Assembly (NCBI RefSeq): GCF_004138485.1
Contig: NZ_RYEV01000004.1
Span: forward strand, 1,114,803 to 1,178,802
DNA length: 64,000 nucleotides
Origin: Peristeroidobacter soli
GTDB lineage: Bacteria; Pseudomonadota; Gammaproteobacteria; Steroidobacterales; Steroidobacteraceae
Reading direction: 5' to 3'
Part shown: in pieces, positions 30,706 to 53,941 of the stretch
Layout of the letters: each line of letters starts with the position of its first letter
Position numbering within the stretch: the stretch's first letter is position 1
Position numbers and translations under genes: made by a program
Notes under the pieces: model-generated
Database searches by the model: none
Told to the model about the DNA's origin: nothing
Seen by the model: the letters and a program-made list of their open reading frames with translations, nothing else

Positions 30706-30729
30706 GGCAGGCTCCGTGGTGCCTTCGGA

Positions 30730-31920: not shown

Positions 31921-31970
31921 GACTCGACCCCATCCGACTGTTTCGTGATGGGATCGTTATACGGAGCGAG

Positions 31971-32000
31971 AAAAAAGCCGCGGTTGCAAAAGTTGCGGCT
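31971..32000 (-). terminator. Intrinsic terminator of the winged-helix/TPR regulator gene
   Basis: On the minus strand AGCCGC (32000-31995) pairs with GCGGCT (31981-31976) around a 13-base loop and is followed directly by TTTTTT. It lies 40 bases beyond the stop at 32040 and before the serine hydrolase start at 31920, so it separates two transcription units. Confidence 0.7.
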
Positions 32001-32039
32001 CCCGGTGTCCCGCCGACAACGCGGCGGCCGGTCCGCCGA

Positions 32040-34832: not shown

Positions 34833-35027
34833 CTAGCGCCTGCTTCCCCATCGCAGCGTCGGGTGGAATCGGCCCGCCTGACTCTGCAGGAACTCCCAAG
34901 AAGGGATGGGCTCGGCCGGCTCCAGCGGCCTGAGTCTGTTGAGCCGGGGCGGCGGCGTCACCGGCTCACTCCTGGCGGGTTGCTGAGCGTCCGTTGATTC
35001 CAGGACCGTCGCTGAACTCGAATCCAT
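34833..35027 (-). CDS. Small Pro/Arg-rich hypothetical protein (64 aa)
   Basis: A 64-residue reading frame with ATG at 35027 preceded by GGGGGAG eight bases upstream, starting 22 bases after the PF03640-repeat gene on the same strand. The protein is hydrophilic, with SEPVTPPPRLNRLRPLEP in the middle and WEFLQSQAGRFHPTLRWGSRR at the end. No signal peptide, membrane segment or recognised domain. The ribosome site and operon-like position are the only support; I do not recognise the family. Confidence 0.4.
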   Translation of the reverse strand: MDSSSATVLESTDAQQPARSEPVTPPPRLNRLRPLEPAEPIPSWEFLQSQAGRFHPTLRWGSRR

Positions 35028-35049
35028 CTGCCGCACTCCCCCGTCACAA

Positions 35050-36459
35050 TCACGGAATCGCAATCGACCACCACAAGCCCGCGCCGCCATCCATGGGCGT
35101 GCCCACATTGACGACGTAGTTCGGATCGTCCGAGACCACGATGTCGTAGCTGTCGTGGCCGTTCATATCGCCGGGCTTCAGATCGCCGGCATAGGTCCAC
35201 AGCGCATAGCCTTGATACACCCACTGTTTCTTACCGTCGGCACGCGTGGCGACATCCCAGAATCCGGACGGCTGCGCGTCGTCGGCGGCGAGGAAGGGCT
35301 GCCAGTTCTTCTGACATTCTTCATCGCAGCGAGCGTTCGTTCCAAGATCGCGACCGACCGCGGGTCGTGCCGGCTGCCCGCGACGCAAGCTGTGACCGCC
35401 GCCTGACTGCAAGATATAACCATCGCGGCGATATAAAGTGAGACCTTCCGCCGTCGCAAGCACCCGCCCCTGCCCAGCCGTTGTTTGAATGCTGACGGCT
35501 GGCGGCATGTAGTAGCGCGCGACCGCCGCCACCTCCAACTGTTGATCGACGCTCAACCCGTTCGCGTAGCCCGGCGCAAGATCGCCAGTGAATGTATATA
35601 GCGGTCGGCCATGGAACGCCCATTGATGCGTGCCGTCGCTGCGCTCGACGATGGTGAAGTCGCCGAGAGCTTCCGCCAGCTGCGACGCTGTGAGCACTTC
35701 CCACTGCCTGCATGCATCGGTCGTGCAACTTTCAATCTGTTCGGCGCGACTCGCATCCGCCGCGTAGACGGTGTGATTGCGACGATCCACCAACACGAAC
35801 GCTGCCGCATCCGGCAGTTCCTTCACGGCCAGGCCCGCGGGCAATTTCAGATCGGCGATGGGATACGCCAGCGCCGGCTTCCAACCCTCGGGCATGGGAT
35901 CCGCTTGGGTCTTGCCCCCTTTGAGATCGCCGCGATAACCGCCGCCCACCATGACTCCGGCGCCGTTGCGCCTGAGTGCGCCGAGGTTGGCGGGACTCTC
36001 CCCGCCCAGGCTGCCCGGATCGACGTCCTTTATATAGGTGTACAGCGCCTTGCCTTTCAGTGCCCATTGTTTCTGACCATCGGCAAGGTCGATCAACGAC
36101 CACTCGCCCGAAGCCGCGGCGCCAGGGGCCGCTTTGAAGGCGACAAATGTTTTGGCGCACTCGTCCACGCACGTCGCCTTGCCCGCAGGATCTTTGTCCC
36201 ACGTGTAGAGCGTCATGCCGCGCGTGTCGGTATAGGCGATCTGATCGCGCGCAATCGCGGATGCCGTGCTCTTTCCCAAATCGTAGCCTTGTGCTTTGCC
36301 GAGTGGCTGCATGGTCACGCCTAACGGCGTGAGCACCGATATCGCTCGAGCCTGCGATGCGTCGGCGCCCGATGACGTTTTGGAAAGCAACGAGAACCCG
36401 GTGGCCGCGCCGGCAATCGCGATCCCGGCACCGATGCATGCGATCGTTACTGTCTTCAT
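35050..36459 (-). CDS. Exported PF03640 (lipoprotein/secreted repeat) protein
   Basis: 469 residues with an N-terminal hydrophobic export segment (MKTVTIACIGAGIAIAGAA) but no clear lipobox. It carries three copies of the 'secreted repeat' pattern: a strand like GMTLYTWDKDPAGKATC, a paired Cys in CVDECAKTF or CDEECQKNWQPF, and a DGQKQWALKGKALYTY-like strand, near residues 80-145, 230-300 and 345-430. The middle copy is the most altered. The family is common in exported bacterial proteins and has no assigned function; the paired Cys are probably disulfide bonded. It starts 7 bases after the DUF1552 gene and appears to belong to the receptor-led operon. Confidence 0.82.
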   Translation of the reverse strand: MKTVTIACIGAGIAIAGAATGFSLLSKTSSGADASQARAISVLTPLGVTMQPLGKAQGYDLGKSTASAIARDQIAYTDTRGMTLYTWDKDPAGKATCVDECAKTFVAFKAAPGAAASGEWSLIDLADGQKQWALKGKALYTYIKDVDPGSLGGESPANLGALRRNGAGVMVGGGYRGDLKGGKTQADPMPEGWKPALAYPIADLKLPAGLAVKELPDAAAFVLVDRRNHTVYAADASRAEQIESCTTDACRQWEVLTASQLAEALGDFTIVERSDGTHQWAFHGRPLYTFTGDLAPGYANGLSVDQQLEVAAVARYYMPPAVSIQTTAGQGRVLATAEGLTLYRRDGYILQSGGGHSLRRGQPARPAVGRDLGTNARCDEECQKNWQPFLAADDAQPSGFWDVATRADGKKQWVYQGYALWTYAGDLKPGDMNGHDSYDIVVSDDPNYVVNVGTPMDGGAGLWWSIAIP

Positions 36460-36466
36460 GCGAGCC

Positions 36467-37792
36467 TCACGCGATGATGTCAGTCAACGGTTTGGAGGTT
36501 TCGTTCGACAGACGCCCCCAGGAATTGAGCGGCACTCCCATGACCTGCTGCACCGTCAAACCCACGCGCGTGCTCGGATCGCCGGTCGCAACCACGTGCA
36601 AACCTGTCTTGAGCCGGCCATTGCCGCTGCCCACCGTGAGAATCGGCAGATCATCCATGGTGTGAGTGCGTGCATAACCGTGATCGGTCTGCCACAACAC
36701 CAGCGTGCGATCCAGCACCGACCCCGGCCCTTCCTTGTAACTGTCCAGCGTGGTGAGGAAGGACGCGAACGTCTTGGTCGCGAACTCGATGAACCAGGTC
36801 ACGTCCTTCTGATAGCCGAGCTGCGGATCGATGGGCTCCTCGTGCGTGAGACTGTGCCAGTCGCGCACGCCGCCGGGCGTCCGCAAGCCCTGCGTGCCGA
36901 AGTTCATGTTGAATACGCGCGTTTGACCGCACGCGATCGCATGCGCCAGCAGCCCGGCAAACAATTGGTTGTTTCGTTCCACCGCCGCGACGTTGCGCCC
37001 GGGCTCGGCCTGCTCGATTTTCTCCGGAATGCTGCAAGCGGCCATCGGCGCGGGCTTTTGCAATTCCATGTCGAGTTGCTGCTCGACCTGGCGCAGCGAG
37101 GTGAAATATTCATCGAGCCGCGCGCGATCCGACGCGCCGACCCGCTGCATCACGGCCTTGCGCTCCTCGCTGACCGCAGAGAGCACGCTTCGACGCGCCA
37201 TCACCTGAGGATCGGGCGTGAACTCGGCGCTGTTCGGGTCCCTGAACTCGGGCCCGAACAGACGCGTGTACAGCGCCGCCGGCGAGGGCTCGGACGGATT
37301 GATTGCACCGCCTTTGCGACGGCTCAAGCTTTGCCGACCGCCGCTCAACGCGATTTCGATGGACTTGAAACGGGTGCGGTTGCCGATCACGTCGGCAATG
37401 GTGGTATCCAGGCTCGGATCGGAATTCACGCCCAACGGCAACGAGCCCATGGTGGCGATCTGCACGCCGCTGACGTGAGTTTCGAGCGGCCGGCCATCCA
37501 GGAAATATTTGGTGCCGCTGATGACGTTGATACGATCCCGGAACGGATCGAGCACTTTCATCTCGGCATTGTTCTGGTAGTTGGCGCCCAGCGTCGCCGG
37601 CTTCCAGCGGCCCGGATTGAAGCCGAGATTCTGGAACCACGAGCCGAACACCACCGGCAGCTCACCGCCGGTCGCGGCGAGCGCCGTGCCGTTGGTATTC
37701 AGGAAACAATCCAGAAACGGCAGCGCGACCGAGACAGCGGTGCCGCCGAGCATGCCTCGCAGCACGGTGCGGCGATTCAACCCTTTACTCAT
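36467..37792 (-). CDS. DUF1552 protein with Tat signal
   Basis: 441 residues from the ATG at 37792, which overlaps the upstream stop by 8 bases. The N-terminus NRRTVLRGMLGGTAVSVALP is a twin-arginine export signal, implying folding before export, often with a cofactor. The body matches DUF1552: FQNLGFNPGRWKP, SGTKYFLDG, a Ser/Arg-rich segment near GGRQSLSRRKG, LLAHAIACGQTRVFNMNFG and LWQTDHGYARTHTMDDLP. Genes of this family regularly lie next to DUF1592-type genes in several phyla, as here; the pair has no established biochemical function that I know of. Confidence 0.87.
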   Translation of the reverse strand: MSKGLNRRTVLRGMLGGTAVSVALPFLDCFLNTNGTALAATGGELPVVFGSWFQNLGFNPGRWKPATLGANYQNNAEMKVLDPFRDRINVISGTKYFLDGRPLETHVSGVQIATMGSLPLGVNSDPSLDTTIADVIGNRTRFKSIEIALSGGRQSLSRRKGGAINPSEPSPAALYTRLFGPEFRDPNSAEFTPDPQVMARRSVLSAVSEERKAVMQRVGASDRARLDEYFTSLRQVEQQLDMELQKPAPMAACSIPEKIEQAEPGRNVAAVERNNQLFAGLLAHAIACGQTRVFNMNFGTQGLRTPGGVRDWHSLTHEEPIDPQLGYQKDVTWFIEFATKTFASFLTTLDSYKEGPGSVLDRTLVLWQTDHGYARTHTMDDLPILTVGSGNGRLKTGLHVVATGDPSTRVGLTVQQVMGVPLNSWGRLSNETSKPLTDIIA

Positions 37793-39509
37793 GATGACGC
37801 TCCAGCTCGGCTGTGATGATTTCTTCCGTCGGGGGCAATCGATTGGCGGGCGCCGCCTTGGGCGGACCGACCCGATACAAGGCATCGCTCAGCGCAATCT
37901 CCTGCATCAGCGCCGGCAGACGATGACCGCTCTTTTCGAAGTCCGCTCTGAGCTCCCTGAGCCACTTGCGCTCTTCCTTCATCGGCGTGCGCCCGAGGGC
38001 TCGCGCGGACAGACGATCCACCACACACGTGACGGCGGCGGGATTGTCATAGATGGCTTGTCCCAGACCGCCGGCATCCCGATACGAGATGCCGTCGATC
38101 TCGCCGGTCGGGTCGATGGGCGAGCCATTCTCGGTGGTACGAAACTCGCCCGCGCCGTCGAAATTCTCCAGCGCGAAGCCGATCGGATCGATGATCTTGT
38201 GACAACCGGAGCATGACGGCACGGTCGCATGCGCGGCGAGGCGTTCCCGGGCGGTCGACGCACCGTGCGCCGTGTTGTTTTCAAACTCGGTGAAACTCAC
38301 ATCCGCTGGCGGCGGCGGGACCGTCTGGCAGAGCGCGATCTCTCGCACCGCCTTGCCACGCAACGTCGGCGAGCCACGACCGGCCGGTGAATGCAACGCC
38401 GTGAAGGCCACCTGCGTCAGAATGCCGCCCCGCGGATCGTCGGCCGCGAATTCATATGGCTGCCACTCGTCGGGCGACCCGTTCGGCCCTTCCTTGAAGA
38501 TGGGCACCTGATAGATGGCCCCCAGCTCCGGCGTCAGGAAGGTCTTGCGAGTGGTGAAGATCTCGCGATAGTCCGCGTTGCGAGTCAGCACCACATCGAG
38601 CACCGTCTTCATCGTTTGCTCGCGCGCATCCGCCGCCGCTTGCGCACTGAACTTCGGGAACAGCGCGGCATCCTTGGCCAGCACCTCGAACTCATCGAAG
38701 CGCAGTTGATCGACGAAGAACGCGCGCACGCCTTGCTCCAGTCGGGGCGACGTCATCATGCGCTTGACCTGGCGCTCCAGGCCGCGCCGGGTCTGCAACT
38801 CACCCGCGGCAGCCGCCGACAACAGCATCGAATCCGGTGCCGAATTCCATAGAAAGAAACTCAGCTGAGCGGCGACTGAGTAGTCGTCGAGCCGGAAACC
38901 GCCCTTGTGTTCCGGATCCGGCTCGACGATTTGTTCGACGAACAGGAACGACGGCGAGGACAGCATGCTGGCCAGGCTCAATCCCAGGCCCTGATAGAAA
39001 TCGCCCGTGATGCGCGTCGCCTCGGACGCCGCGGTCAGGTAGGCCGACAATTGCTCCTCGGTCAGTGGCCGGCGATATAACAACCGGCCCACCTTGCTCA
39101 GAAACTCTCGCGCGCACTTCTCATCCGCGGCGACAGGCGACGCCGGCTTGCACGGCACCAGCATGTCACGATGATTGGCATCGACGGCTTGAGCGGCAAC
39201 CGCGCGTCCCATCGCGTCGTACTGCTCCATGCCGGCGGCCGTGATGCTGACCTGACTCGCGCCGACGGCGAGCAAGCCATCCACACGCATATCGGGTTCG
39301 AAACGTCCGCCAAGATCGATATCGCCACCAAACACGTCCTGAACGATGTTTCGATACTGTTCCGCCGTCAGGCGCCGCGTAACCGATGGCCCCGCGCTGA
39401 ACTTGTGATCGTCCGAGCCTGGCAGGAGCGTGACCGCAGTGACCGCTGCAACAGCAACCACGACGGCGGCGCCTATCAACCGGGACTTTTTCATCTTCGC
39501 TTCACTCAT
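37785..39509 (-). CDS. DUF1587/1595/1592/1588/1585 multidomain cytochrome-like protein
   Basis: 574 residues with an N-terminal membrane/export segment (RLIGAAVVVAVAAVTAVTLL). In order: DUF1587 (RRLTAEQYRNIVQDVFG, ~45), DUF1595 (~125-185), DUF1592 (~195-325, FRLDDYSVAAQLSFFLWNS), DUF1588 (~345-445) and DUF1585 (~460-535). A single haem c site, CSGCH, is followed by KIIDPIGFALENFDGAG. The protein is shorter than relatives that carry an extra N-terminal cytochrome domain. It probably acts in the periplasm in electron transfer with the Tat-exported DUF1552 partner, whose gene it overlaps by 8 bases. The start overlaps the previous stop as ATGA. Confidence 0.87.
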   Translation of the reverse strand: MSEAKMKKSRLIGAAVVVAVAAVTAVTLLPGSDDHKFSAGPSVTRRLTAEQYRNIVQDVFGGDIDLGGRFEPDMRVDGLLAVGASQVSITAAGMEQYDAMGRAVAAQAVDANHRDMLVPCKPASPVAADEKCAREFLSKVGRLLYRRPLTEEQLSAYLTAASEATRITGDFYQGLGLSLASMLSSPSFLFVEQIVEPDPEHKGGFRLDDYSVAAQLSFFLWNSAPDSMLLSAAAAGELQTRRGLERQVKRMMTSPRLEQGVRAFFVDQLRFDEFEVLAKDAALFPKFSAQAAADAREQTMKTVLDVVLTRNADYREIFTTRKTFLTPELGAIYQVPIFKEGPNGSPDEWQPYEFAADDPRGGILTQVAFTALHSPAGRGSPTLRGKAVREIALCQTVPPPPADVSFTEFENNTAHGASTARERLAAHATVPSCSGCHKIIDPIGFALENFDGAGEFRTTENGSPIDPTGEIDGISYRDAGGLGQAIYDNPAAVTCVVDRLSARALGRTPMKEERKWLRELRADFEKSGHRLPALMQEIALSDALYRVGPPKAAPANRLPPTEEIITAELERHHE

Positions 39510-40609
39510 CGGCGCGTCACCTGCGGCGTCGGCGCCCCGGCGTCCTTCACGAACGCCGGCACGGCCTCGATGTAGTACGTCGCCGAGATCGATTCGTTCT
39601 GACCGGTGACAGGATCGGGATCGGCATCGGCGTACCGCTTCAACAAGTGGTAGAAGCCGGGAACGTCACCCGTCACCTGCTGTTCGCCGCCAAAGCCGAC
39701 GCCCGCGATGCCCCAATAAATCGGACGCCACGGCGTGTAGCCGCCCATGAAACCGCGCGCGGAGCGATCGGCTTTCAACTCCAGACGCAGATGCACGTCT
39801 TTCAAGTTGAATTCGGGCGACACCAGCGGGTTCTGTAACAGCCGCAGCTTGCCGTGCTCGGTGATGGTGACGACGCCGTCGCGCAACTCACCTTTGAATT
39901 GGTTTCGCGATCTCGGGTCCGGATCGACGCGATACGCCATGTCGAACCGAGGTGAGCCATCGCTGTTGGAACGCAGATATTCGTAAGCGCGATCGATGCC
40001 GACGGTGACCGGACCGTCCTTCTTCAGATCCGCGCCTTCGAGGGTGATCAACCAGGCGGGCTGCGAATCCTTCAGCTGCCCCCAGGCCCACGCCCAATAG
40101 GTCGGGCGACTGGCCAGCGAGCCGCGAAAGGCCCGCGTGCAACCGAGTGCGCGATACAGATTGTGATCGACGCCGCGCTCCTTGGTTTCGGGGTCTTGAA
40201 AGCTGCCGGGCTGATCGGCCCCTTTGCCATCGAGGTCGAAGCCGAACCCCTCCTTGCCGTCCAGGCCCGGCAAGCTGAGGTCGACGACCGAGGCCGGGTG
40301 GGTGTAGGGATTGACCGGTTTGCCGTCGATCCGGCCGCGATTCATGATGAGCTGGTCGAGATCGCGGACCTCGTCGCCATTCATGATCTTGCGGCGCCAC
40401 TCAGCCACTTGCTGAGGTGTCGCGCCGAGCTTCGCGGCATAGCGCAGATACACTTCCTCGACCGCCGGATGCACGCCCTGCGAACAATCGTGATCGTTGC
40501 TGTACGTCGCTTGAGAGAACCAGCTGATCGCGAAGTGACGCGTCTCCGCCGCCGCATTCGCAAGCGGCAGGCACGCCAACGTCAAGGACGCCAACACGAT
40601 TCGCTTCAT
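39506..40609 (-). CDS. Secreted protein of unknown function
   Basis: 367 residues from the ATG at 40609, giving a signal peptide (MKRIVLASLTLACLPLANA) and a 4-base ATGA overlap with the upstream gene; the longer in-frame start has neither. I do not recognise a catalytic family. The mature protein has a region with GFGFDLDGKGADQPGSF and GVDHNLYRALGCTRAF, then a beta-rich second half ending in GIAGVGFGGEQQVTGDVPGF. Two Cys (in NDHDCSQG and ALGCTRAF) could form a disulfide. Overlap with genes on both sides shows it is an integral part of the receptor-led operon. Confidence 0.75.
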   Translation of the reverse strand: MKRIVLASLTLACLPLANAAAETRHFAISWFSQATYSNDHDCSQGVHPAVEEVYLRYAAKLGATPQQVAEWRRKIMNGDEVRDLDQLIMNRGRIDGKPVNPYTHPASVVDLSLPGLDGKEGFGFDLDGKGADQPGSFQDPETKERGVDHNLYRALGCTRAFRGSLASRPTYWAWAWGQLKDSQPAWLITLEGADLKKDGPVTVGIDRAYEYLRSNSDGSPRFDMAYRVDPDPRSRNQFKGELRDGVVTITEHGKLRLLQNPLVSPEFNLKDVHLRLELKADRSARGFMGGYTPWRPIYWGIAGVGFGGEQQVTGDVPGFYHLLKRYADADPDPVTGQNESISATYYIEAVPAFVKDAGAPTPQVTRR

Positions 40610-41748
40610 TTCGGCAGGCTCCCCGCGGTGATCACCCACTTCTGAATCCGCTTGCCGGCGGCCTCGGCGGTGAACACGTTGCCCTTCGAATCGAAGGCTG
40701 CTTGATGCATGCGATTGAGCTGGCCGGCGTAGTTGCCGAAGTCACCGAACGTTCCAATCGCCGCACCGGTCGCGCGCCGCACGAAGCGAACCTGAAAATT
40801 GCCCAGATCGGCCAGTGCCAGCACACTTTGCTCGCGATCGGGCGAGAAACTGATGTGACCCACCGTGCCCGGCGGACGAGTTTCCTTGCCGTAGATATAT
40901 TCGGCGACGAAGCTGCCGTCGCGCTTGAACACCTGCATGCGGTCGTTGTCGCGATCGCAGACATACACCAGCCCGTCGCGCGACACCTTCACGCAATGAA
41001 CGTTTCTGAATTGCGATGAGGGCGACGCGGATGGCTCGTACGGCCCGACGTTGTCGTCGGTCGGTGGCTTGCCATACGCGCCCCACATGCGCTTGAAGGC
41101 GCCGGTGTCGGCATCGAACACGATGATGCGATGATTGCCGTAACCGTCGGCCACGAATATTTCATTGCTGGACGGATCGATGGCGATATCGGCCACCCCC
41201 GCCAGCTGGGAGCTGTCCAGACTGCCTTTCGACGCACCGGCATGCCCGATCTGCATCAGGAATTTGCCGTCGTGAGTGAACTTCAACAGCATGCCGTCGG
41301 GCGGCTCGCCCTTGGGACCCGGTCGGGTCGAGCTGCCGCCCACCCAGACGTTGCCTTTGTGATCGACCAGGATGCCGTGCTCGGTGCTCGGCCACTCATA
41401 GCCCTTGCCCGGCCCACCCCAGGCCTGCACCAGGTTGCCTTGCGGATCGAATTCCATGACCGGTGGCGCCGGCACACAGCAGCGCCCCGTCGGCGGATCG
41501 AGCGCGGCCGCCTTTTCCCAAGGAAACAATGTGCCCGGACGCTGCACCACCCACACATGGTCGTTCGCATCCACGAACATTCCGCCCATCTCGCCAAACG
41601 TCCATTTGTTCGGCAGCGGCAGCTTCGGCCACGAAGTATCGACGGTGTAACGTGGCATCTGCTCCGCTGGAGCATCCGCCGCCACGGGCGCAGCGGATCC
41701 CAGCAATGCAAACGCCGCGGTCAAGAACAAATTCGCGGCGGTACGCAT
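40606..41748 (-). CDS. Secreted NHL-type six-bladed beta-propeller protein
   Basis: 380 residues from the ATG at 41748 with a signal peptide (MRTAANLFLTAAFALLGSA, cleavage near VAADA). Repeated NHL-type strands are visible: GGMFVDANDHVWVVQRPG, GILVDHKGNVWVGG, IAIDPSSNEIFVADGYGN, VKVSRDGLVYVCDRDNDR and AAFDSKGNVFTAEAAGKR. This predicts a six-bladed propeller of the NHL/peptidylglycine-lyase-like kind, often lactonase-like or binding; no catalytic assignment is possible. The start codon overlaps the TonB receptor stop as TGATG and the stop overlaps the next gene as ATGA, so translation is coupled on both sides. Confidence 0.85.
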   Translation of the reverse strand: MRTAANLFLTAAFALLGSAAPVAADAPAEQMPRYTVDTSWPKLPLPNKWTFGEMGGMFVDANDHVWVVQRPGTLFPWEKAAALDPPTGRCCVPAPPVMEFDPQGNLVQAWGGPGKGYEWPSTEHGILVDHKGNVWVGGSSTRPGPKGEPPDGMLLKFTHDGKFLMQIGHAGASKGSLDSSQLAGVADIAIDPSSNEIFVADGYGNHRIIVFDADTGAFKRMWGAYGKPPTDDNVGPYEPSASPSSQFRNVHCVKVSRDGLVYVCDRDNDRMQVFKRDGSFVAEYIYGKETRPPGTVGHISFSPDREQSVLALADLGNFQVRFVRRATGAAIGTFGDFGNYAGQLNRMHQAAFDSKGNVFTAEAAGKRIQKWVITAGSLPK

Positions 41749-44639: not shown

Positions 44640-44650
44640 GAATTCCCCCT

Positions 44651-44705
44651 GCAACGCCCGACGCCCACGAGCGTCCGGTCGAGTCAGGGCTCGACCGGGC
44701 GTTGC
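44651..44705 (-). promoter_or_regulatory. Candidate structured leader (three-way junction) before the TonB receptor start
   Basis: In minus-strand RNA, GCAACGCCCG (44705-44696) pairs perfectly with CGGGCGTTGC (44660-44651). Inside lie two small hairpins, GTCGAG/CTCGAC (6 pairs, 6-base loop) and ACGC/GCGT (4 pairs, 6-base loop). The closing stem ends one base before the AGGGGGA ribosome site. An alternative 9-pair hairpin at 44675-44698 competes with the closing stem. No U-tract follows, so this is more like a leader element than a terminator. Confidence 0.55.
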
Positions 44706-44782
44706 GGGTCTGAACAGGCGCTGTGATTGCTTCGTTCACTGTAATTTCGTGCTTGCCCGTCGGCGCAGGCCGCGGGCTGCAC

Positions 44783-44812
44783 TTACTACGTTCGAGCGCA
44801 CGAAAATGGAAA
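44783..44812 (-). promoter_or_regulatory. ECF-sigma promoter motif, TonB receptor operon
   Basis: Minus-strand TTTCC (44812-44808), 13 bases, then CGAACGTAGTAA (44794-44783). It shares the spacing and most bases with motifs before the sigma gene, the cytochrome gene and the second receptor. It lies 144 bases before the start codon, leaving room for the structured leader. Confidence 0.7.
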
Positions 44813-44826
44813 CAGCGACGGTCGGA

Positions 44827-47800
44827 TCACCAGCGCAGGCGGATACCGGCCCGATAGGCGCGGCCGACGGTGTCGTAAAGCAGCGGATTGACACCGGGAT
44901 CGACAAAGCTCACGCCGGCGATGCTGCCGACCGGCGGCGGATCGCGATCGGCCAGATTGTCGACTTTGAAGAACAGCTCGCAGTTGCGCAGGCCGCCGGT
45001 GTCGTGCAGCCGGTAGGTGAGCGACAGGTCCAGGTACACAGCGCCCGCGACGCGGTTGTTATCTATGGTGCGATTCACGACGCTCGGCGCCGGACAGGCC
45101 GAGGTACATTCGACGTATGCGTTTTCCAGCTTGCCGCTGCTCACGCCGTGGCCGATCAGACTGATGCCGTAATCATAAGTGTCGTAGCTCGCCATGCCGA
45201 GCCAACGCCACTGCGCCGCCGAACCACTGTTGTCGCCCGCAAGCTCGGTGACCGTGATGCCATCGTCGATGCGACGTTCGATGACATGTGTCGCAAGTGC
45301 CCGCAGGGTGAGATTGCCGCCCCATACCGGCCGACGATAACTGGCTTCGATATCGACGCCCTCCGCGGTCTCCGATAACAGATTGACCGGCTGCACCGTG
45401 ACCTGCGTGATCACGCCATTCGCGTCACGCACGATGGCCGAGCACAGCGCCGTGTTACCGGCAAAGCAGCGATCGACGATCGCCTGCTGCTGAATGGTGG
45501 CGATGGCCTTGTCGACGTCGATGCGATAGTAATCGACCGACATGCTCAGGCCCGGCGCCAGGCCCGGCTGATACACGACGCCCACGCCCAGCGTGTCCGC
45601 CTGCTCCGGATCCAGGTTCAGATTGCCGATCATGGGCCGCAGGATCAGCGCGGTGGCATTGGCTCGAAACGGATCGCTGACCTGTTGAGTATTCACCTGG
45701 CCGGCCAGGAACAGATCGTTCAAGTTCGGCGCCCGAATATCCCGGGAACGCGTGCCGCGAAAGGTCAGATTGCGCACCGGCGAATACGTGGCGCCGAGTT
45801 TCCAGGTCACGACCTGCCCCGAGGCGCTGTAATCGGTCCAGCGCACGGCCCCGTTCAGATCCAGCACCTGCGCCCCGGGCCGCTCGCTCAGGATCGGCAC
45901 GACGCTTTCCAGAAAGCCCTCGATCACATCGAAGGAACCGCGCGTCGCCTTGAAATTGCCGACGAAGTAGCCGCTCGCCTGCGCGATGGGATCGGCATGC
46001 GAGATCACCGACTCCTGCCGGTACTCGACGCCACCCGCCATCGACACCGGCCCTGCCCACGTCGAAAAAGGCTCGCCTTGCACGCTCGCCGCGATCACAT
46101 CCTGCTGCAGGCGTTGGTCGAGTCGCGCGGTGCCGAGCACATAGTTCACGGCCGCTGGCGAGTTCACGCCGTAGCCGAGCACGTTGTAGGGAACACAACC
46201 GTTGCCGGGATCGGTCAGCGTCGAGCGGCAGACAATCTGGCCATTGGCATCACGCACCGAATCGATCGCCTCACGGTAGTTGGCGACGATGGTCGAGGTG
46301 ACATCGTTGACGATATTGCTCGTGCCCCGCTGCGCATACGCATCCCAGCGCCAGCTCGGGCCGAGCCTGGGAAGTTTGCCGTTGATGCCGGCGACAACAC
46401 GTTTCACATCCCGTTGCGAGTAACCATGGATGGCGCCGAGATCCTGATTGGTCGAACCCACCGTGAGGGTATCGAGCTCGAGACGCTGCATGTCGGCGCG
46501 CACGCTGTCGGGCAGGAAGGCGTTGTCGCGTTGAATGGTGATGTTGTTGAGGTAGTAGTTCCAGCAACACTGATTGTCGGTCTCGGAGTGCGCGTATGAG
46601 GCGATCCCGAAGATCTGCACATCGTCGGTCAGCTGCCAGCTGGCACGCGAGAAAAATGTTTGACGCTTCACGGCCGCTTCGAGATCGGGCGTGCGCGATC
46701 GATCGGAGATTTGCCAGTCGCCCCCCGACATGACGGGCGGCGAGTCGATGGCGCCGTACCGAAACTGGCGCACAGCTCCGCCTTGCGTGAACTCGGTGCC
46801 TCGCAGCGGGCCGCTCGTCACCAACGCGCCCGGCGTGGCCTGACTGATCGCGGATTCCGGACGCAACAGCAGCTCCGGCTGGCCGTTGCCCGATGCGTAA
46901 TCCGGATTGTTGAGGACTTTCCAGCCCCGGTACCACGAGCGGGCGATACCTCGCACGCCATCCGCGTCACTGAAACCGCTGCTGAACAGAAAGTGGCCGC
47001 GCGTGCCCGCGAACGGCATGCCGGCGGTGAGCGATACCTGATATTTACCGCCATCGCCGTGCTCGGTCATGCCGACCATGGCATCCGTTTTCAGACCCGT
47101 GAAGTCCTTGTTGAGAATGAAGTTGACGACACCGGTCATCGCGTCCGAGCCGTAAGCGGCCGACGCGCCGCCAGTGACGACATCGACGCGCTCGATCAAC
47201 CCGTCCGGCAACTGATTGATGTCGACGACGCCGGTCAATGCCGTGGGCGTGAGCCGCGCGCCATCCATCAATACGAGCGTGCGATTGGCGCCCATGCTGC
47301 GCAAGTCCAGCGTGTTCGTACCCGCTTGTCCGCCGCTCACGCCGGAGTTGCCGGAGCGCGGCGTCGCGCTGCCTGCGAGCGCGGGCACGAAATTGACCGC
47401 ATCGGCGACGTTGCTCGCGGCCAATACTTTCAGCGTTTCATTGCTGACCACCGTCGTCGGCGTCGGGGCTTCATAGCCATCGCGGATCACGCGCGTCGCG
47501 GTGACGACGATCTCATCGAGCACGTCATCCTCATCCGCCCGCTCGAGGTGTTCGACTCCTTTGGAACCGGCGGCAAGCGCGGTGTCGGCGGCGTGCTCGG
47601 ACAACTTGGGATGAATCGAGATGATGTCCCGGCTCAGCACCGTGTAGCGCAGATTGGTGCCTTTGAGCATGGTCTCGAGCGCATCGACGATACGATGGCG
47701 ACCACGCACCTCGGCCGCAACGCTCTGCGCCACTTCCTCGCCCGAGGAGATCACCTGCAGGTGTGCTTGATCCGAAAACTCGATGAGGGCTGTCGCGAGC

Positions 47801-47973
47801 GACTGGGCGGGAATCTGGAAGACGGCCTCGCGCGAGCCGACATCTTCGATGGCGCCGCGGCTGGGGTCAGCATGAGACGCGAAGACAATGACCAACAGAC
47901 TCATCAGCACGACGCAACGCTGCAGCCGCATGACGCAGCCCGCGGGCCCGTCCGCGCTGAATCGCACCATCAT
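44827..47973 (-). CDS. TonB-dependent receptor with N-terminal STN signalling domain (FecA-like)
   Basis: 1048 residues. After a hydrophobic signal (VVLMSLLVIVFASHA) comes a secretin/TonB short (STN) domain at ~50-120 (FQIPAQSLATALIEFSDQA, then GRHRIVDALETMLKGTNL), the part that in FecA-type systems contacts the FecR-like anti-sigma protein. The plug has LDEIVVTATRV, YEAPTPTTVV, LRSMGANRTLVLMDGARL and VDVVTGGASAAYGSDAMTG; the barrel ends YRAGIRLRW. The ligand is unknown. With the FecR-like gene just upstream it forms the expected surface-signalling set. Start ATG at 47973 follows a G-rich site; an internal ATG at 47931 is possible. Promoter motif at 48040-48069. Confidence 0.9.
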   Translation of the reverse strand: MMVRFSADGPAGCVMRLQRCVVLMSLLVIVFASHADPSRGAIEDVGSREAVFQIPAQSLATALIEFSDQAHLQVISSGEEVAQSVAAEVRGRHRIVDALETMLKGTNLRYTVLSRDIISIHPKLSEHAADTALAAGSKGVEHLERADEDDVLDEIVVTATRVIRDGYEAPTPTTVVSNETLKVLAASNVADAVNFVPALAGSATPRSGNSGVSGGQAGTNTLDLRSMGANRTLVLMDGARLTPTALTGVVDINQLPDGLIERVDVVTGGASAAYGSDAMTGVVNFILNKDFTGLKTDAMVGMTEHGDGGKYQVSLTAGMPFAGTRGHFLFSSGFSDADGVRGIARSWYRGWKVLNNPDYASGNGQPELLLRPESAISQATPGALVTSGPLRGTEFTQGGAVRQFRYGAIDSPPVMSGGDWQISDRSRTPDLEAAVKRQTFFSRASWQLTDDVQIFGIASYAHSETDNQCCWNYYLNNITIQRDNAFLPDSVRADMQRLELDTLTVGSTNQDLGAIHGYSQRDVKRVVAGINGKLPRLGPSWRWDAYAQRGTSNIVNDVTSTIVANYREAIDSVRDANGQIVCRSTLTDPGNGCVPYNVLGYGVNSPAAVNYVLGTARLDQRLQQDVIAASVQGEPFSTWAGPVSMAGGVEYRQESVISHADPIAQASGYFVGNFKATRGSFDVIEGFLESVVPILSERPGAQVLDLNGAVRWTDYSASGQVVTWKLGATYSPVRNLTFRGTRSRDIRAPNLNDLFLAGQVNTQQVSDPFRANATALILRPMIGNLNLDPEQADTLGVGVVYQPGLAPGLSMSVDYYRIDVDKAIATIQQQAIVDRCFAGNTALCSAIVRDANGVITQVTVQPVNLLSETAEGVDIEASYRRPVWGGNLTLRALATHVIERRIDDGITVTELAGDNSGSAAQWRWLGMASYDTYDYGISLIGHGVSSGKLENAYVECTSACPAPSVVNRTIDNNRVAGAVYLDLSLTYRLHDTGGLRNCELFFKVDNLADRDPPPVGSIAGVSFVDPGVNPLLYDTVGRAYRAGIRLRW

Positions 47974-48039
47974 CCGCCCCCCGACTCACCATCGCATCCG
48001 TCCACTCGGCGTGGCCCGGAACTCTTCTAGTAGTGCGGA

Positions 48040-48069
48040 TATATACTTTCGAACGGCGCCGGAGGGAAG
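48040..48069 (-). promoter_or_regulatory. ECF-sigma promoter motif, STN-type TonB receptor
   Basis: Minus-strand CTTCC (48069-48065), 13 bases, then CGAAAGTATATA (48051-48040), 67 bases before the receptor ATG at 47973. Same layout as the three sister sites, with one change in each half. Confidence 0.65.
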
Positions 48070-48082
48070 CAGCGATTGGCGC

Positions 48083-49087
48083 TCAGCCGCGAGGAACCAG
48101 CTCGATGGCGTCGCCCCGCTCCCGAACCCGCAGCGGAAAGATGCTCTCGAGCGCCTTGAGCGTGTCGTCGATGCGCGAGCTGAATACCGTGCCGGTGAAA
48201 GGCATGGCGCTCAATTGCGCATCGCTGATGATGATGCGCTTGTTGTGATACCGGCTCAGGTCCTGAGCGACGCTGCCCAGCGGCTCATGCATGTACTTGA
48301 GCACGCCGCTGCGCCACGACGCCACGTCGTTGGCGTTGATCGCCGCGATGGTGACGGAGCGCGACTCGCTACTGTAAATGGCCTGTTGACCGGCCAGCAG
48401 CGGGGTTCGCACGCTCTTCGGTATCAGGTCGGCACCGTCAGCGGACTCACTACCGCTGTTCAGTTGTACGCGCCCTTCGCTGACCGAGATCACGACCCGC
48501 TCGCTGTTGCGCCTGACGTTGAATGCCGTCCCGACAGCGGTCACTCTCATGTCGCCCGCATCCACCAGGAACGGACGGCTCGGATCCTTGGCCACCAGAA
48601 AGTAAGCCTCGCCGGCATCGACACTGATGAAACGCTGGCTGGCGGTGTAGCGGGTGGTGATGCGTGAGTCCGCGCCCAGTTCCACTCGCGAGCCGTCGGG
48701 CAGCACGCTGCTGCCGGTGCCGGCGATCGGCGTCGCATAACTCTGCAGCAGCTCATCGTGATCGTTACGCAAGAGCGCGAACGAGCCGATCCCGACCGCG
48801 ATCAACACCGTCGCCGCGAGACCGAGCCACACGGGACGATGCATTCGCCATCCCACCACGCCGACCTGCCGTTGCGCCAGCGGCGCTTCGGGCGCGGCCG
48901 GATTGGCCGCGTGCCACACCAATTGCGCCGACTGAAATTCTTCCAGGTTGCGCGGATCCTCTTCGCACCATTGCAGCCACGCGACGGCCAGCGCTTCGTC
49001 GCCCGGCGCATCGTGCAAGCGGACCAGCCAGTCGGCGGCCGCCGCCATCCGGTCCAGGTCTGCAGTGGTGGGGATCGAACCTGTCAT
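48083..49087 (-). CDS. FecR-like anti-sigma/signal transducer
   Basis: 334 residues from the ATG at 49087, which overlaps the sigma-factor stop as ATGA. In order: a DUF4880-type N-terminal domain that would bind the sigma factor (AAADWLVRLHDAPGDE, then AWLQWCEEDPRNLEEF), one transmembrane helix (VWLGLAATVLIAVGIGSFAL, ~85-105), a periplasmic FecR domain (GSSVLPDGSRVELGADSRI, VTAVGTAFNVRR) and a C-terminal STN-like segment (PLGSVAQDLSRYHNKRIIIS). It sits in the inner membrane and relays the state of the STN-type receptor to the sigma factor. Neighbours on both sides fit the FecI-FecR-FecA arrangement. Confidence 0.92.
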   Translation of the reverse strand: MTGSIPTTADLDRMAAAADWLVRLHDAPGDEALAVAWLQWCEEDPRNLEEFQSAQLVWHAANPAAPEAPLAQRQVGVVGWRMHRPVWLGLAATVLIAVGIGSFALLRNDHDELLQSYATPIAGTGSSVLPDGSRVELGADSRITTRYTASQRFISVDAGEAYFLVAKDPSRPFLVDAGDMRVTAVGTAFNVRRNSERVVISVSEGRVQLNSGSESADGADLIPKSVRTPLLAGQQAIYSSESRSVTIAAINANDVASWRSGVLKYMHEPLGSVAQDLSRYHNKRIIISDAQLSAMPFTGTVFSSRIDDTLKALESIFPLRVRERGDAIELVPRG

Positions 49088-49689
49088 CGCTTCAGGCGCT
49101 CCAGCGCCTCCTCTTTGCTTGCGCCTCGCAGGCGCAGCTGGCAATACATCAGCGAACGCGTCAGGTGGTGCCGGACCATGCGCTCGGTCACTTTGAGCTC
49201 GACCGCAATCTCCGCCACGCTCAGGCCCTGCACCCGATGCAGGTAAAATGCGCGCTGCGCCGACGGCGTCAACTCGTCCAGACACCGGTTTACAAAACCC
49301 AGCTCCTCGGCCGCCAGGGTGCGACGCTCGGGATCGTCCCGGACCGTCAGCTCATCGAACAGCTCGGCCTCGACCGCGGCAGCCGATCGATACCGGACAT
49401 TGCGCTGACGCAGCCGGTCCACCGCCAGGTTCGAAGCGATCCGAAACAAGTACGCCCGCAGCAGGCTGGCCGCCCCGGGCCGATCCAGCTGCAACAGCCG
49501 CACGTACGATTCCTGCGCCACTTCCTTCGCGTCCTGCACCGACTTCAATTGCAGCGTCAACAGACTGACCAGCGCCTGGTTGTGCTCACGAAACAAGCGC
49601 TTGACGAGCTCCGCCCGCGCGGCGCTGTCGGCGTCGTCGCTCGGGGGCTCAGTCACGAACGGTGGCTCTGGGACGTAGTCCGATGGCAT
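49084..49689 (-). CDS. ECF (FecI-like) RNA polymerase sigma factor
   Basis: 201 residues. Sigma region 2 is visible at ~25-95 (LVKRLFREHNQALVSLLTL, DAKEVAQESYVRLLQL, YLFRIASNLAVDRLRQRN) and region 4 at ~130-185 (LDELTPSAQRAFYLHRVQG, then LSVAEIAVELKVTERMVRHH). It has an ATG at 49689 with AAGG in front and overlaps the anti-sigma gene by 4 bases. The motif at 49718-49747 immediately upstream suggests it activates its own gene, and the same motif precedes two receptors and a cytochrome gene nearby. Confidence 0.93.
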   Translation of the reverse strand: MPSDYVPEPPFVTEPPSDDADSAARAELVKRLFREHNQALVSLLTLQLKSVQDAKEVAQESYVRLLQLDRPGAASLLRAYLFRIASNLAVDRLRQRNVRYRSAAAVEAELFDELTVRDDPERRTLAAEELGFVNRCLDELTPSAQRAFYLHRVQGLSVAEIAVELKVTERMVRHHLTRSLMYCQLRLRGASKEEALERLKR

Positions 49690-49717
49690 CGTAACCTTCT
49701 GGCGCGCTGGCCATGCC

Positions 49718-49747
49718 TATATACGTTCGAGGCTGGCCAGACGGAAA
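49718..49747 (-). promoter_or_regulatory. ECF-sigma promoter motif, sigma-factor gene (autoregulation)
   Basis: Minus-strand TTTCC (49747-49743), 13 bases, then CGAACGTATATA (49729-49718), 28 bases before the sigma ATG. This copy is closest to the consensus of the four sites. Measured to the CGTA core the gap is 17 bases, normal for ECF promoters. Confidence 0.7.
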
Positions 49748-49774
49748 CCGGGCCGGCACTTTACTCCGCCCCGC

Positions 49775-51076
49775 TCAGCGCTGCCTGGCCACTTGCGCTT
49801 CGGTGACCGCGCCGCCGACATTGCCCCAGGCATTGCGCAGGTAGCTCGCGATGGCCGCCACTTCGTCATCGGCGAGCTTGTCGCCGAAGTGACCGGGCAT
49901 GTCCTTCCAACGCTTCGGGCCAGGCAACTTCGCCAGGTGCGGGCCGTAAAGAATGACGTTGATGAGCGACGCCGGATTGCTCGCCTGCACCACCGGATTG
50001 CCGACCAGCTTCGCGCCGGCATCGAAAGCCTGAGCGCCGAGACCGTTGGGCTGATGACAGGTGCCGCAGTGAACGCTGTAAAGGGCCTCACCGGCGCTCA
50101 GCACCGCTTCGCTCGCGGGTTTGCCGATGGCGCCTTCGTCGGCCGGCAGACTCTTCAAGTACCTGGCCATGGCAAGCGTGTCCGCATCGGTGAGGTGCCG
50201 CGTGCTGTTCAAGATGACTTCGTTCATCGGGCCGTGCGTCTCGCTGAAGGAATTGCGCCCGGTCTTGAGATAGGTCGCGACCTCCTCCACTGGCCATGGG
50301 CCCAGACCGTTCTTGGCACTGGTGAGATTCGGCGCCGACCACGGACGGCTCTCGCCGGTCACGACCTTGTCGGTGTATTCGCCGCCGGTATAGGCCTTGC
50401 TGGTCTGTTCCGCGCCCAGAAAGTTTCGAGGCGAATGACACGCGGAGCAATGACCCAGGCTTTCGACCAGATAGGCGCCGCGATTCCATTCGGGCGATTG
50501 CGCGCTATCGGGCTGGAAGCGCCCTGCGTCGAAGAACATCGTCTTCCAGAGACCGAGCGCCCAGCGTTGATTGAACGGGAACCCCATTTCGTTCTGCGGT
50601 GGCTGCTCGCTCACCGGCGGGACGATCTTCAGGAACGCGTACAGCGCGGCCACATCTTCATCGCTCAACTTCGTGTATGCCGTGTATGGAAACGCGGGAT
50701 AGAGATGCGCGCCGTCGGGGCGCACGCCTTCGCGAACCGCGCGAACGAATTGCTCCTCGGTCCATTTGCCGATGCCCGCGTCGGGATCGGAGGTGATGTT
50801 GGTCGAATAGAGCTTGCCAAACGGCGTCTCGAAGCCGAGACCGCCGGCGAAAGGCTGTCCTCCAGGGGCAGTGTGGCAACTGACGCAATTTCCGGCACGG
50901 GCAAGATAGCGGCCGCGTTCGATGAGCGAATTGCCTTGATCGCCGGTGGCGGGTACGGAGCTGTCAGCCTTGGTGGAGCTCGCGAGCGACAGCCCGGCCA
51001 GAGCCGTCAGACCGAGCGCTCCCAGTACAGCGGCGACACGAGCGTGTCGACCGCCGTCGATTGTCGACGTCGTCAT
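49775..51076 (-). CDS. Periplasmic triheme cytochrome c (alcohol/gluconate dehydrogenase cytochrome-subunit type)
   Basis: 433 residues with an N-terminal membrane/signal segment (VAAVLGALGLTALAGLSLA). Three haem c sites are present: CVSCH at 64-68, CSACH at 210-214 and CGTCH at 337-341, spaced as in the cytochrome subunits of membrane-bound alcohol, aldehyde and gluconate dehydrogenases. Methionines in suitable positions (for example GFPFNQ preceded by NEM, and DMPGHF) could be axial ligands. No dehydrogenase gene is adjacent. It is divergent from the LAL regulator and its start region carries the ECF motif, so it appears to belong to the sigma regulon with the receptor operons rather than to a local dehydrogenase. 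Confidence 0.88.
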   Translation of the reverse strand: MTTSTIDGGRHARVAAVLGALGLTALAGLSLASSTKADSSVPATGDQGNSLIERGRYLARAGNCVSCHTAPGGQPFAGGLGFETPFGKLYSTNITSDPDAGIGKWTEEQFVRAVREGVRPDGAHLYPAFPYTAYTKLSDEDVAALYAFLKIVPPVSEQPPQNEMGFPFNQRWALGLWKTMFFDAGRFQPDSAQSPEWNRGAYLVESLGHCSACHSPRNFLGAEQTSKAYTGGEYTDKVVTGESRPWSAPNLTSAKNGLGPWPVEEVATYLKTGRNSFSETHGPMNEVILNSTRHLTDADTLAMARYLKSLPADEGAIGKPASEAVLSAGEALYSVHCGTCHQPNGLGAQAFDAGAKLVGNPVVQASNPASLINVILYGPHLAKLPGPKRWKDMPGHFGDKLADDEVAAIASYLRNAWGNVGGAVTEAQVARQR

Positions 51077-51115
51077 TAGTTATCGAATCCCCCACCATGG
51101 CACGCGGCCCAGCCG

Positions 51116-51145
51116 TATATACGTTTCAGCGTGGGGGGATGGAAA
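51116..51145 (-). promoter_or_regulatory. ECF-sigma promoter motif, triheme cytochrome gene
   Basis: Minus-strand TTTCC (51145-51141), 13 bases, then GAAACGTATATA (51127-51116), 40 bases before the ATG at 51076. It aligns without gaps with the three other sites and lies in the divergent region shared with the LAL regulator. Confidence 0.7.
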
Positions 51146-51230
51146 CGGGCCGATTTGGAGATTCCTGGCAGCGGCGTGCACAATCGCCCTGTTGCCCGAA
51201 CCAGAGCGTTTCGCTCCGATCCGCAGACCG

Positions 51231-53843: not shown

Positions 53844-53875
53844 CCCCTACTAACCGGACGCCGCCCCCTACTAAC
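53844..53875 (+). promoter_or_regulatory. Direct repeat CCCCTACTAAC x2, 21 bases apart (candidate activator site)
   Basis: Identical 11-base copies at 53844-53854 and 53865-53875, two helical turns apart, begin right after the LAL regulator stop and upstream of the receptor operon. MalT-type activators bind short direct repeats on one face of the helix, so this is a candidate operator. Inference from position and spacing only. Confidence 0.4.
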
Positions 53876-53887
53876 GTCGCCCCTTTC

Positions 53888-53923
53888 GCGCCCGGCCACG
53901 CACGGCAGAATCGGTCCGGGCGC
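53888..53923 (+). promoter_or_regulatory. Inverted repeat in the leader of the DUF917/hydantoinase operon
   Basis: GCGCCCGG (53888-53895) and CCGGGCGC (53916-53923) can form an 8-pair stem with a 20-base loop, ending 18 bases before the receptor ATG. It could be a leader hairpin or the end of the regulator transcript; no U-tract follows. High GC makes chance pairing possible. Confidence 0.3.
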
Positions 53924-53941
53924 AGGCTACTGGGTTTCGAC

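What the first reader, a model, noticed from the sequence alone, without database searches (positions are those of the whole stretch)
34833..51145. Sigma-controlled regulon joining two TonB receptors, DUF1592/DUF1552 proteins and c-type cytochromes
Seen: a FecI-like sigma gene, FecR-like gene, STN receptor, second receptor plus six downstream genes with overlaps of 1, 4, 4 and 8 bases (then 7- and 22-base gaps), and a triheme cytochrome, all minus strand. Known: FecI-FecR-FecA surface signalling; DUF1592/DUF1552 genes commonly pair, function unassigned. Inferred: an outer-membrane receptor senses and imports a substrate that the NHL, DUF1552, DUF1592 and repeat proteins process oxidatively in the periplasm, with electrons leaving by the cytochromes. 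I know of no described system with this composition. This is my leading candidate for an undescribed system.
Basis: partly seen in the sequence, partly recalled or inferred. Interest (0 to 1): 0.85.

Follow-up and report, generated by a model that had tools for sequence, protein, structure and literature searches.

The report
ECF-sigma-controlled periplasmic oxidation gene cassette
A soil-type bacterium carries a self-contained, signal-controlled set of genes - two outer-membrane importers, a cytochrome and four proteins of unknown function - and those four proteins recur together, usually in the same order, in many other bacteria, so they probably form an undescribed machine that oxidises something in the cell envelope.

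Summary
In detail: the genes and overlaps described are there. The exact form occurs three times in the 9.37 Mb genome, all here; GYTTCC-N15-AAMGTA five times, four here.

The receptors, NHL gene and sigma pair are variable parts. The conserved core is a four-gene cassette: an unnamed family (UNK, 40609-39506), compact DUF1592, variant DUF1552 and PF03640. Of 76 loci found through UNK, 46 have 6 kb on both sides; 42 of 46 hold DUF1592 and DUF1552, 34 of 46 all three partners. Cassette enzymes differ from canonical DUF1592/DUF1552 pairs: one haem motif instead of two, Hxx[ST]H(E/D/S/T)E instead of Hxx[ST]HH, and a separate clade. UNK and DUF1592 give confident AlphaFold models without a significant PDB fold match.

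Most likely: a ligand-inducible importer plus periplasmic oxidation module feeding electrons to c-type cytochromes. Substrate and chemistry are not shown. Regulon and cassette as a unit: high confidence. Oxidation of an imported substrate: about even.

The parts
51120..51146 (-). ECF-type promoter element GTTTCC-N15-AACGTA upstream of the cytochrome gene
49775..51076 (-). triheme c-type cytochrome; relative of the cytochrome subunits of membrane-bound fructose/glucose/alcohol dehydrogenases, with no dehydrogenase subunit in the regulon
   Evidence: three CxxCH; 8hdd_B E 3.4e-88, 8gy2_B E 2.9e-85
49722..49748 (-). promoter element, exact match, upstream of the sigma gene
49084..49689 (-). FecI-like ECF sigma factor
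   Evidence: Pfam; NCBIfam
48083..49087 (-). FecR-like sigma regulator, 4-base overlap with the sigma gene
   Evidence: Pfam; NCBIfam FecR model, below cut-off
48044..48070 (-). promoter element (GCTTCC-N15-AAAGTA, two mismatches) upstream of the STN receptor
44827..47973 (-). TonB-dependent receptor with a probable N-terminal signalling (STN) domain, the presumed sensor
   Evidence: Pfam; NCBIfam FecA alignment
44787..44813 (-). promoter element, exact match, upstream of the second receptor and the downstream genes
44633..44786 (-). structured 5' leader of the receptor-2 operon (with its first codons)
   Evidence: MFE -73.4 kcal/mol, z -3.98; hairpin part single copy in the genome; no Rfam family at gathering score
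41748..44639 (-). second TonB-dependent receptor, no STN match; its N-terminal end as held in L004 is 39% identical to receptor 1 over about 109 residues
   Evidence: Pfam; tblastn
40606..41748 (-). NHL beta-propeller protein with a signal-like N-terminus by eye (variable part)
   Evidence: Pfam; solved-structure search; distribution
39506..40609 (-). UNK: unnamed protein with a signal-like N-terminus by eye, first gene of the conserved cassette
   Evidence: no Pfam/NCBIfam family; AF2 pLDDT 91.8; no PDB fold match at E<=0.001
37785..39509 (-). compact DUF1592 (PSD3-PSD5-PSD4-PSCyt3-PSD2), one c-haem motif
   Evidence: Pfam; AF2 pLDDT 90.9, no PDB fold match
36467..37792 (-). variant DUF1552 with twin-arginine N-terminus and HSLTHEE motif
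   Evidence: Pfam
35050..36459 (-). PF03640 (Lipoprotein_15) repeat protein, last gene of the conserved cassette
   Evidence: Pfam
34833..35027 (-). 64-codon ORF, no match; possibly not a gene

Best explanation
The locus is a dedicated cell-surface-signalling regulon that makes an importer plus a periplasmic oxidation module. Supported by sequence: a FecI-type sigma, FecR and a TonB receptor with a probable STN domain are present, and four promoter elements found essentially only here place the sigma pair, both receptors, the operon behind receptor 2 and a triheme cytochrome under one control. Supported by comparison: UNK, compact DUF1592, variant DUF1552 and PF03640 form a conserved four-gene unit. 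Inferred: a ligand bound by receptor 1 signals through FecR to the sigma factor; receptor 2 imports the same or a related ligand; in the periplasm the cassette oxidises it, DUF1552 supplying a metal-dependent active site, DUF1592 a mono-haem electron outlet, UNK and PF03640 binding or scaffold roles; electrons pass to a separate c-type cytochrome (here the triheme one) and on to quinone or an oxidase. Many copies in some genomes suggest that copies differ in substrate.
For: Promoter element: exact form 3 sites in 9.37 Mb, all here; GYTTCC-N15-AAMGTA 5 sites, 4 here; 0 of 1000 shuffles of the four upstream regions as good. Cassette: of 76 loci, the 46 with 6 kb on both sides of UNK hold DUF1592 in 42, DUF1552 in 42, PF03640 in 37, all three in 34; the order UNK>DUF1592>DUF1552>PF03640 makes up 56 runs over 96 loci. 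In 296 genomes of the order UNK occurs in 21; all 21 also have DUF1552 and DUF1592, 19 of 21 PF03640. Haem: 104 of 109 cassette-locus DUF1592 frames have exactly one CxxCH, none has two; of the five with none, four are cut by a contig or locus end. Twin-arginine: R7 invariant, R8 at least 90% in 50 DUF1552. Electron carriers among 124 operon neighbours: cytochrome c' 5, cbb3-III-type cytochrome c 5, HiPIP 4, PQQ dehydrogenase 3. Triheme cytochrome within 10 kb in 9 of 16 order regions and 5 of 46 named loci; TonB receptors in 10 of 16 and 7 of 46. Eleven of the 76 loci are from one MAG.
Against: No member of the cassette has a solved relative (no hits, or one at E 0.15) and I found no published activity. 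No dehydrogenase or oxidase of known type is in the operon. The triheme cytochrome and receptors are missing from most of the 46 named loci. The sigma pair is rare beside the cassette, and no site of the element lies within 20 kb of the genome's other two cassettes on contigs C9 and C10. The reversed control pattern gives 4 sites for the degenerate form and 19 (against 24) with one mismatch, so single sites mean little; the weight is on four in one locus. The commonest operon neighbour is CHRD (21 of 124), not an electron carrier. No background rate for neighbours was measured. UNK was the search bait, and genomes are related, so loci are not independent. Four of 46 loci lack DUF1592 and DUF1552. 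I did not inspect model coordinates, so haem and metal sites are inferred from conserved residues only.
Confidence: 0.5

Rival explanations
1. Metal or metal-chelate acquisition: as in classical Fec systems, the receptors import a metal complex and the cassette releases the metal in the periplasm by a redox step or by breaking the ligand.
For: Sigma, FecR and STN receptor are the Fec architecture; the NCBIfam FecA model aligns to receptor 1 over residues 46-288. Both receptors align best, far under cut-off, to haem and B12 receptor models.
Against: No inner-membrane metal transporter is among the regulon's genes; Fur-type sites were not searched for. The genome's two other cassettes have no FecI or FecR match within the 20 kb regions held (L034, L035). 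One MAG carries 11 UNK loci, more than metal supply would seem to need.
Confidence: 0.2
2. Polysaccharide or oligosaccharide degradation: the cassette is a variant of the planctomycete-type PSCyt/PSD systems, which have been suggested to act on sugars.
For: PMC5615132 (passages read) reports PSCyt genes near sulfatases and with carbohydrate-binding modules, with function unknown; PMC6004670 (one passage read) lists a Cellvibrio DUF1592 protein as CBM2 in a lignocellulose community. Two hosts have agar-degrading species names (agaridevorans, agariperforans).
Against: No carbohydrate-binding family is among the 25 commonest of 116 neighbour families shown. Around cassettes of four Steroidobacteraceae and two sphingomonad loci the commonest families are TetR, carboxylesterase/alpha-beta hydrolase, short-chain dehydrogenase and enoyl-CoA hydratase; in the 25 of 68 families shown, two glycoside hydrolase families match one member each (64 of 108 proteins scanned).
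Confidence: 0.15
3. Detoxification or envelope stress defence: the sigma factor senses damage or a noxious compound and the cassette destroys it.
For: CHRD, cytochrome c' and cupin proteins near the cassette; in Rhodopirellula an ECF sigma proposed to control a PSD1/PSC2 protein is up-regulated under stress (PMC2754498, passages read).
Against: Receptor-coupled (STN) signalling implies a ligand carried by a TonB receptor; many copies per genome would be unusual for a stress response (both from general knowledge).
Confidence: 0.12

Closest known systems
FecI-FecR-FecA cell-surface signalling
   Same: ECF sigma, overlapping FecR with DUF4880/FecR/FecR_C, TonB receptor with a probable STN domain, shared promoter element.
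   Different: The sigma gene itself carries the element (possible self-control); the regulon includes a second receptor, the cassette and a triheme cytochrome; ligand unknown.
Canonical DUF1592 (PSCyt3/PSD) - DUF1552 gene pair
   Same: Adjacent genes of the same two Pfam families; His six residues before the PSCyt3 CxxCH in 26 of 26 canonical and 56 of 56 cassette proteins.
   Different: Canonical DUF1592 ORFs of the order: two CxxCH in 24 of 26 found in 30 loci, the other two being cut at a locus end, about 780-870 aa stop to stop; cassette DUF1592: never two in 109 frames, median 559 aa in a set chosen at 530-640 aa. DUF1552: His at the sixth motif place in 30 of 30 canonical, 0 of 50 aligned cassette proteins (39 E, 5 D, 3 T, 3 S) and 0 of 100 frames with the motif when no length filter is used (80 E, 11 D, 5 S, 4 T; 8 fragments without motif). 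Separate clade, 100/100. Extra partners UNK and PF03640.
Membrane-bound fructose/glucose/alcohol dehydrogenase cytochrome c subunit
   Same: The regulon's cytochrome is a triheme protein of this family.
   Different: No flavin or PQQ dehydrogenase subunit among the regulon's genes.
Planctomycete-specific cytochrome gene clusters (PMC5615132)
   Same: PSCyt3 genes usually next to a family of unknown genes; function unknown (passages read).
   Different: In the passages read no four-gene cassette, TonB receptor or FecI/FecR link is described.

Membership tests
FecIRA cell-surface signalling | ECF sigma gene of FecI type followed by FecR | tested here: met
   Pfam; NCBIfam FecI and FecR models match below cut-off; 4-base overlap
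FecIRA cell-surface signalling | TonB receptor with N-terminal STN domain | tested here: inconclusive
   STN under Pfam cut-off (16.3 against 28.4 bits) but at the right place; FecA model aligns residues 46-288
FecIRA cell-surface signalling | sigma-type promoter upstream of the receptor genes | tested here: met
   by sequence only, sigma binding not shown
FecIRA cell-surface signalling | iron-chelate ligand | not testable with these tools
   no ligand data
canonical DUF1592-DUF1552 pair | both Pfam families adjacent | tested here: met
canonical DUF1592-DUF1552 pair | Hxx[ST]HH motif in DUF1552 | tested here: not met
   0 of 50 aligned cassette proteins, 30 of 30 canonical; 0 of 100 motif-bearing frames without length filter
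canonical DUF1592-DUF1552 pair | second, N-terminal haem motif in DUF1592 | tested here: not met
   0 of 56 cassette proteins, 24 of 26 canonical; 0 of 109 cassette frames without length filter
FDH/GDH/ADH-type dehydrogenase complex | triheme cytochrome c subunit | tested here: met
FDH/GDH/ADH-type dehydrogenase complex | catalytic flavin or PQQ subunit in the operon | tested here: not met
   none among the regulon's genes or the next genes scanned

The most novel reading that the evidence does not exclude
UNK, mono-haem DUF1592, the HxxTHEE-type DUF1552 and PF03640 form a new four-subunit periplasmic oxidoreductase, fed by TonB receptors and drained by interchangeable external electron carriers, expanded in some bacteria into arrays of substrate-specific copies.
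Probability: 0.4. Interest if true: 0.8.

Novelty: new variant of a known kind. Interest (0 to 1): 0.62.

Why it matters
DUF1592 and DUF1552 genes were multi-copy in several of the 296 genomes scanned, and PMC5615132 (passages) says nothing is known about the function of the planctomycete-type domains. This locus offers a self-contained handle: one sigma factor with a probable four-promoter regulon, so the inducing ligand could be screened with a reporter and the substrate found. It also defines a diagnosable subfamily with a changed metal-site motif, no second haem domain and two steady partners, one of them an unnamed family with a confidently predicted structure and no significant PDB fold match.

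Tried and rejected
Looked for a known function for UNK: no Pfam or NCBIfam family, no solved relative (one hit at E 0.15), best PDB fold match E 0.042; many of the weak matches are beta-barrels and I draw no function from them. DUF1592 model: best PDB match E 2.1. The idea that the NHL protein is an amidating lyase (match to peptidylglycine alpha-amidating monooxygenase entries, best E 1.7e-9) was dropped: NHL proteins Thin and TRIM71 match better and no monooxygenase was found in the regulon by Pfam. A promoter element shared within L102 was not found (best total 7 mismatches over three further regions); in L050 an exact 12-base gapped match (TACGAT-N14-CCTGAT) lies upstream of FecI and of the cytochrome, but a single shared match is weak. 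A wider regulon was rejected: one mismatch allowed gives 24 genome sites against 19 for the control pattern. Of 46 loci, four lack DUF1592 and DUF1552 (L079 has none of the three; L083, L098, L129 only PF03640) and eight have DUF1592 and DUF1552 but no PF03640 match. Thirty of the 76 loci were left out of that count for short flanks. Of the 20 printed DUF1552 rows under 180 bits, 19 have a UNK match within 5 kb (read by eye; the table was cut); G268's has none. Across the phylum UNK is rare: 2 of 398 genomes, one the window's own. The alignment rows behind one search had been chosen by length, which could have hidden longer DUF1592; one search repeats the motif counts without that filter and agrees.
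Full report
Setting. The window lies in a 9.37 Mb genome. Two points are softer: the STN domain of receptor 1 is under Pfam's cut-off, though a FecA model aligns across it, and the last 64-codon ORF has no support beyond its position.

Regulon. I compared the regions upstream of the four candidate transcription units and searched for a shared pair of hexamers. The best pair, GTTTCC-N15-AACGTA, is exact at the cytochrome, sigma and receptor-2 units and has two mismatches at receptor 1. In three of the four sites TATA follows the second hexamer. In 1000 dinucleotide shuffles of the four regions the same search never reached two mismatches; one reached three. In the window, up to two mismatches give 7 sites, mean 1.99 in shuffles, with 2 of 100 shuffles reaching 7. 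In the whole genome the exact element occurs three times, all here, among 24 sites with up to one mismatch against 19 for the reversed control pattern; GYTTCC-N15-AAMGTA occurs five times, four here, with four for its control. The pattern was derived from these sites, so the genome counts show exclusivity, not independent discovery; the shuffles carry the significance. The simplest reading is a local regulon of four promoters that includes the cytochrome. No listed site lies within 20 kb of the genome's two other cassettes, on contigs C9 and C10.

Cassette. The unnamed protein UNK was used as bait. In 296 genomes of the order it occurs in 21; the same search of 296 genomes with DUF1552, PF03640 and DUF1592 gave 48, 36 and 52. 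All 21 UNK genomes have DUF1552 and DUF1592, 19 of 21 have PF03640 (not G215, G271). A scan of named genomes gave 181 relatives, of which the best 80 were kept as 76 loci. With profile searches on these, 46 have at least 6 kb on both sides of UNK; within 10 kb 42 hold DUF1592, 42 DUF1552, 37 PF03640, 34 all three. Of 20 regions taken from the order scan, 16 have such flanks: 16, 16, 12 and 12. The commonest gene order over both sets is UNK>DUF1592>DUF1552>PF03640 (56 runs), next DUF1592>DUF1552>PF03640>UNK (14), DUF1592>DUF1552>UNK (10), UNK>DUF1592>DUF1552 (8). At least five places are in both sets, so these are not 96 independent loci; relatedness of genomes is not corrected for. Hosts by record title include Steroidobacteraceae, Rhodospirillaceae and other Alphaproteobacteria MAGs, Sphingomonas, Sphingobium, Hyphomonas, Aestuariicella hydrocarbonica, Vicinamibacteria and Acidobacteria MAGs, and MAGs labelled Candidatus Marinimicrobia, a label I would not rely on. 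One such MAG (RH-23may17-1068) holds 11 of the 76 loci. In an even sample of the phylum UNK is rare, 2 of 398.

A distinct subfamily. The cassette DUF1592 and DUF1552 are not the ordinary pair. Canonical DUF1592 were taken from the 30 best loci; the ORF was found in 26, with two CxxCH motifs in 24, the other two being cut at a locus end. The extra motif is N-terminal; of five such proteins scanned, three match the cbb3-III cytochrome family there and two of those also PSCyt1, some below cut-off. All 56 aligned cassette proteins have one motif. Those rows had been chosen by length, so I repeated the count on all 109 DUF1592 frames in the cassette loci: 104 have one, 5 none (4 of these cut by an end), none two. 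For DUF1552, canonical proteins read Hxx[ST]HH in 30 of 30; the 50 aligned cassette proteins never have His at the sixth place (39 E, 5 D, 3 T, 3 S), nor do 100 motif-bearing frames without length filter (80 E, 11 D, 5 S, 4 T; 8 fragments lack the motif). A tree of 30 canonical and 50 cassette DUF1552 separates the groups with 100/100 support; treekit warns that long branches meet at that join, and the canonical rows are the best-scoring loci, so intermediates could have been missed. In one search, read by eye, 19 of the 20 printed rows below 180 bits have a UNK match within 5 kb; I saw no printed row at 219 bits or more that shares a contig with one. The conserved residues (H106, H313, H317, E319, D361, H377 in DUF1552; H427, C433, C436, H437 in DUF1592, no conserved Met after the haem motif) fit a metal site and a haem site; that is inference from conservation.

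New folds. AlphaFold models of UNK (pLDDT 91.8) and DUF1592 (90.9) are confident; Foldseek against the PDB gives no match at E 0.001 or better for either. Profile searches of solved structures with all four alignments found nothing better than E 0.15. This is absence at the sensitivity of these programs; no library of predicted cellular structures was on hand.

Neighbours. Of 124 proteins in predicted operons with the cassette, 21 match CHRD, 5 cytochrome c', 5 cbb3-III-type cytochrome c, 4 HiPIP, 4 MFS, 3 PQQ dehydrogenase. The triheme cytochrome occurs within 10 kb in 9 of 16 order regions and 5 of 46 named loci; TonB receptors in 10 of 16 and 7 of 46 (window receptors as queries, so a low count). 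FecI and FecR appear in none of the 46 named loci in that count, in 2 and 1 of the 16 regions. A looser tblastn found FecI in L050 and L040, FecR in L050 and L102, and Pfam a FecI in L102. L102, one of the loci with short flanks, repeats the set FecI, FecR, STN receptor, NHL, PF03640, UNK, DUF1592 before its contig ends; there the sigma pair is divergent from the rest. NHL also follows the cassette in L074. Elsewhere in the order NHL homologues (73 of 296 genomes) are not beside UNK in the rows printed. So the sigma pair, the NHL protein and the receptors look like exchangeable parts around a fixed core.

Mechanism. Steps supported by sequence: a shared promoter element, one haem motif, a twin-arginine motif on DUF1552, conserved grouping; signal-like N-termini of the other proteins were judged by eye. 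Steps inferred: sigma binding, ligand sensing by receptor 1, import by receptor 2, oxidation by the cassette, electron flow to the triheme cytochrome. The lack of the second haem domain in DUF1592 together with separate electron carriers beside some cassettes makes an external outlet attractive, but nothing here demonstrates it.

Literature. Searches for DUF1592 with DUF1552 (0 papers), DUF1592 (2), DUF1552 (2), PF03640 (2), DUF1587/1588/1595/1585/PSD1 (772, of which 20 listed, nearly all on an unrelated Psd1), PSCyt terms (7), Steroidobacter with TonB-dependent and sigma factor (0), DUF1549/1553/1501/PF07631/PF07586/HXXSHH (12) and COG4315/Lipoprotein_15 (10) showed no description of this cassette in titles, listed abstract starts or passages read. 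Passages, not whole texts, were read from PMC5615132, PMC6004670, PMC7789669, PMC8078820 and PMC2754498. Only open-licence papers are held, so this is no proof of absence.

Verdict.

Noticed in passing
window 44633-44786 (-): Strongly folded leader between the sigma-type promoter and receptor 2, ending just before the probable ribosome-binding site (z -3.98); hairpin part occurs once in the genome, no Rfam family at gathering score. Could be a regulatory leader.
   Followed up: partly
L221:4534-6045 (-) (G000 contig C3, about 22 kb beyond the window): Another PF03640 protein of this genome, with no DUF1552 or DUF1592 match listed there; a nearby 1018-codon ORF may be a TonB receptor (not scanned)..
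   Followed up: partly
window 50946-61101 (+): Divergent cluster: LuxR-type AAA/TPR regulator, TonB receptor, two S-Me-THD proteins, hydantoinase/oxoprolinase and an MFS transporter; looks like N-heterocycle catabolism.
   Followed up: no
window 17427-33932 (-): Cluster with beta-helix protein, POT/MFS transporter, amidohydrolase, LysR regulator, TonB receptor, penicillin-amidase-type hydrolase, FG-GAP/UnbV protein, beta-lactamase-fold protein and a TPR regulator.
   Followed up: no
L050 upstream of FecI and of the cytochrome gene: Exact gapped match TACGAT-N14-CCTGAT before both units; possible promoter of that genome's sigma factor, weak on its own.
   Followed up: partly
L100, L112, L118, L123 and others: CHRD-type genes (cluster c3) flank cassettes of Rhodospirillaceae-type genomes, and a gene of the HiPIP-like cluster c10 sits beside a triheme cytochrome; one member of each cluster was scanned by name, more in bulk.
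   Followed up: partly
L035, L038, L044, L091: A four-member cluster, one member scanned as metallo-beta-lactamase fold, lies near the cassette, between receptor and cassette in L035 and L038, perhaps in the place the NHL protein takes in the window.
   Followed up: no
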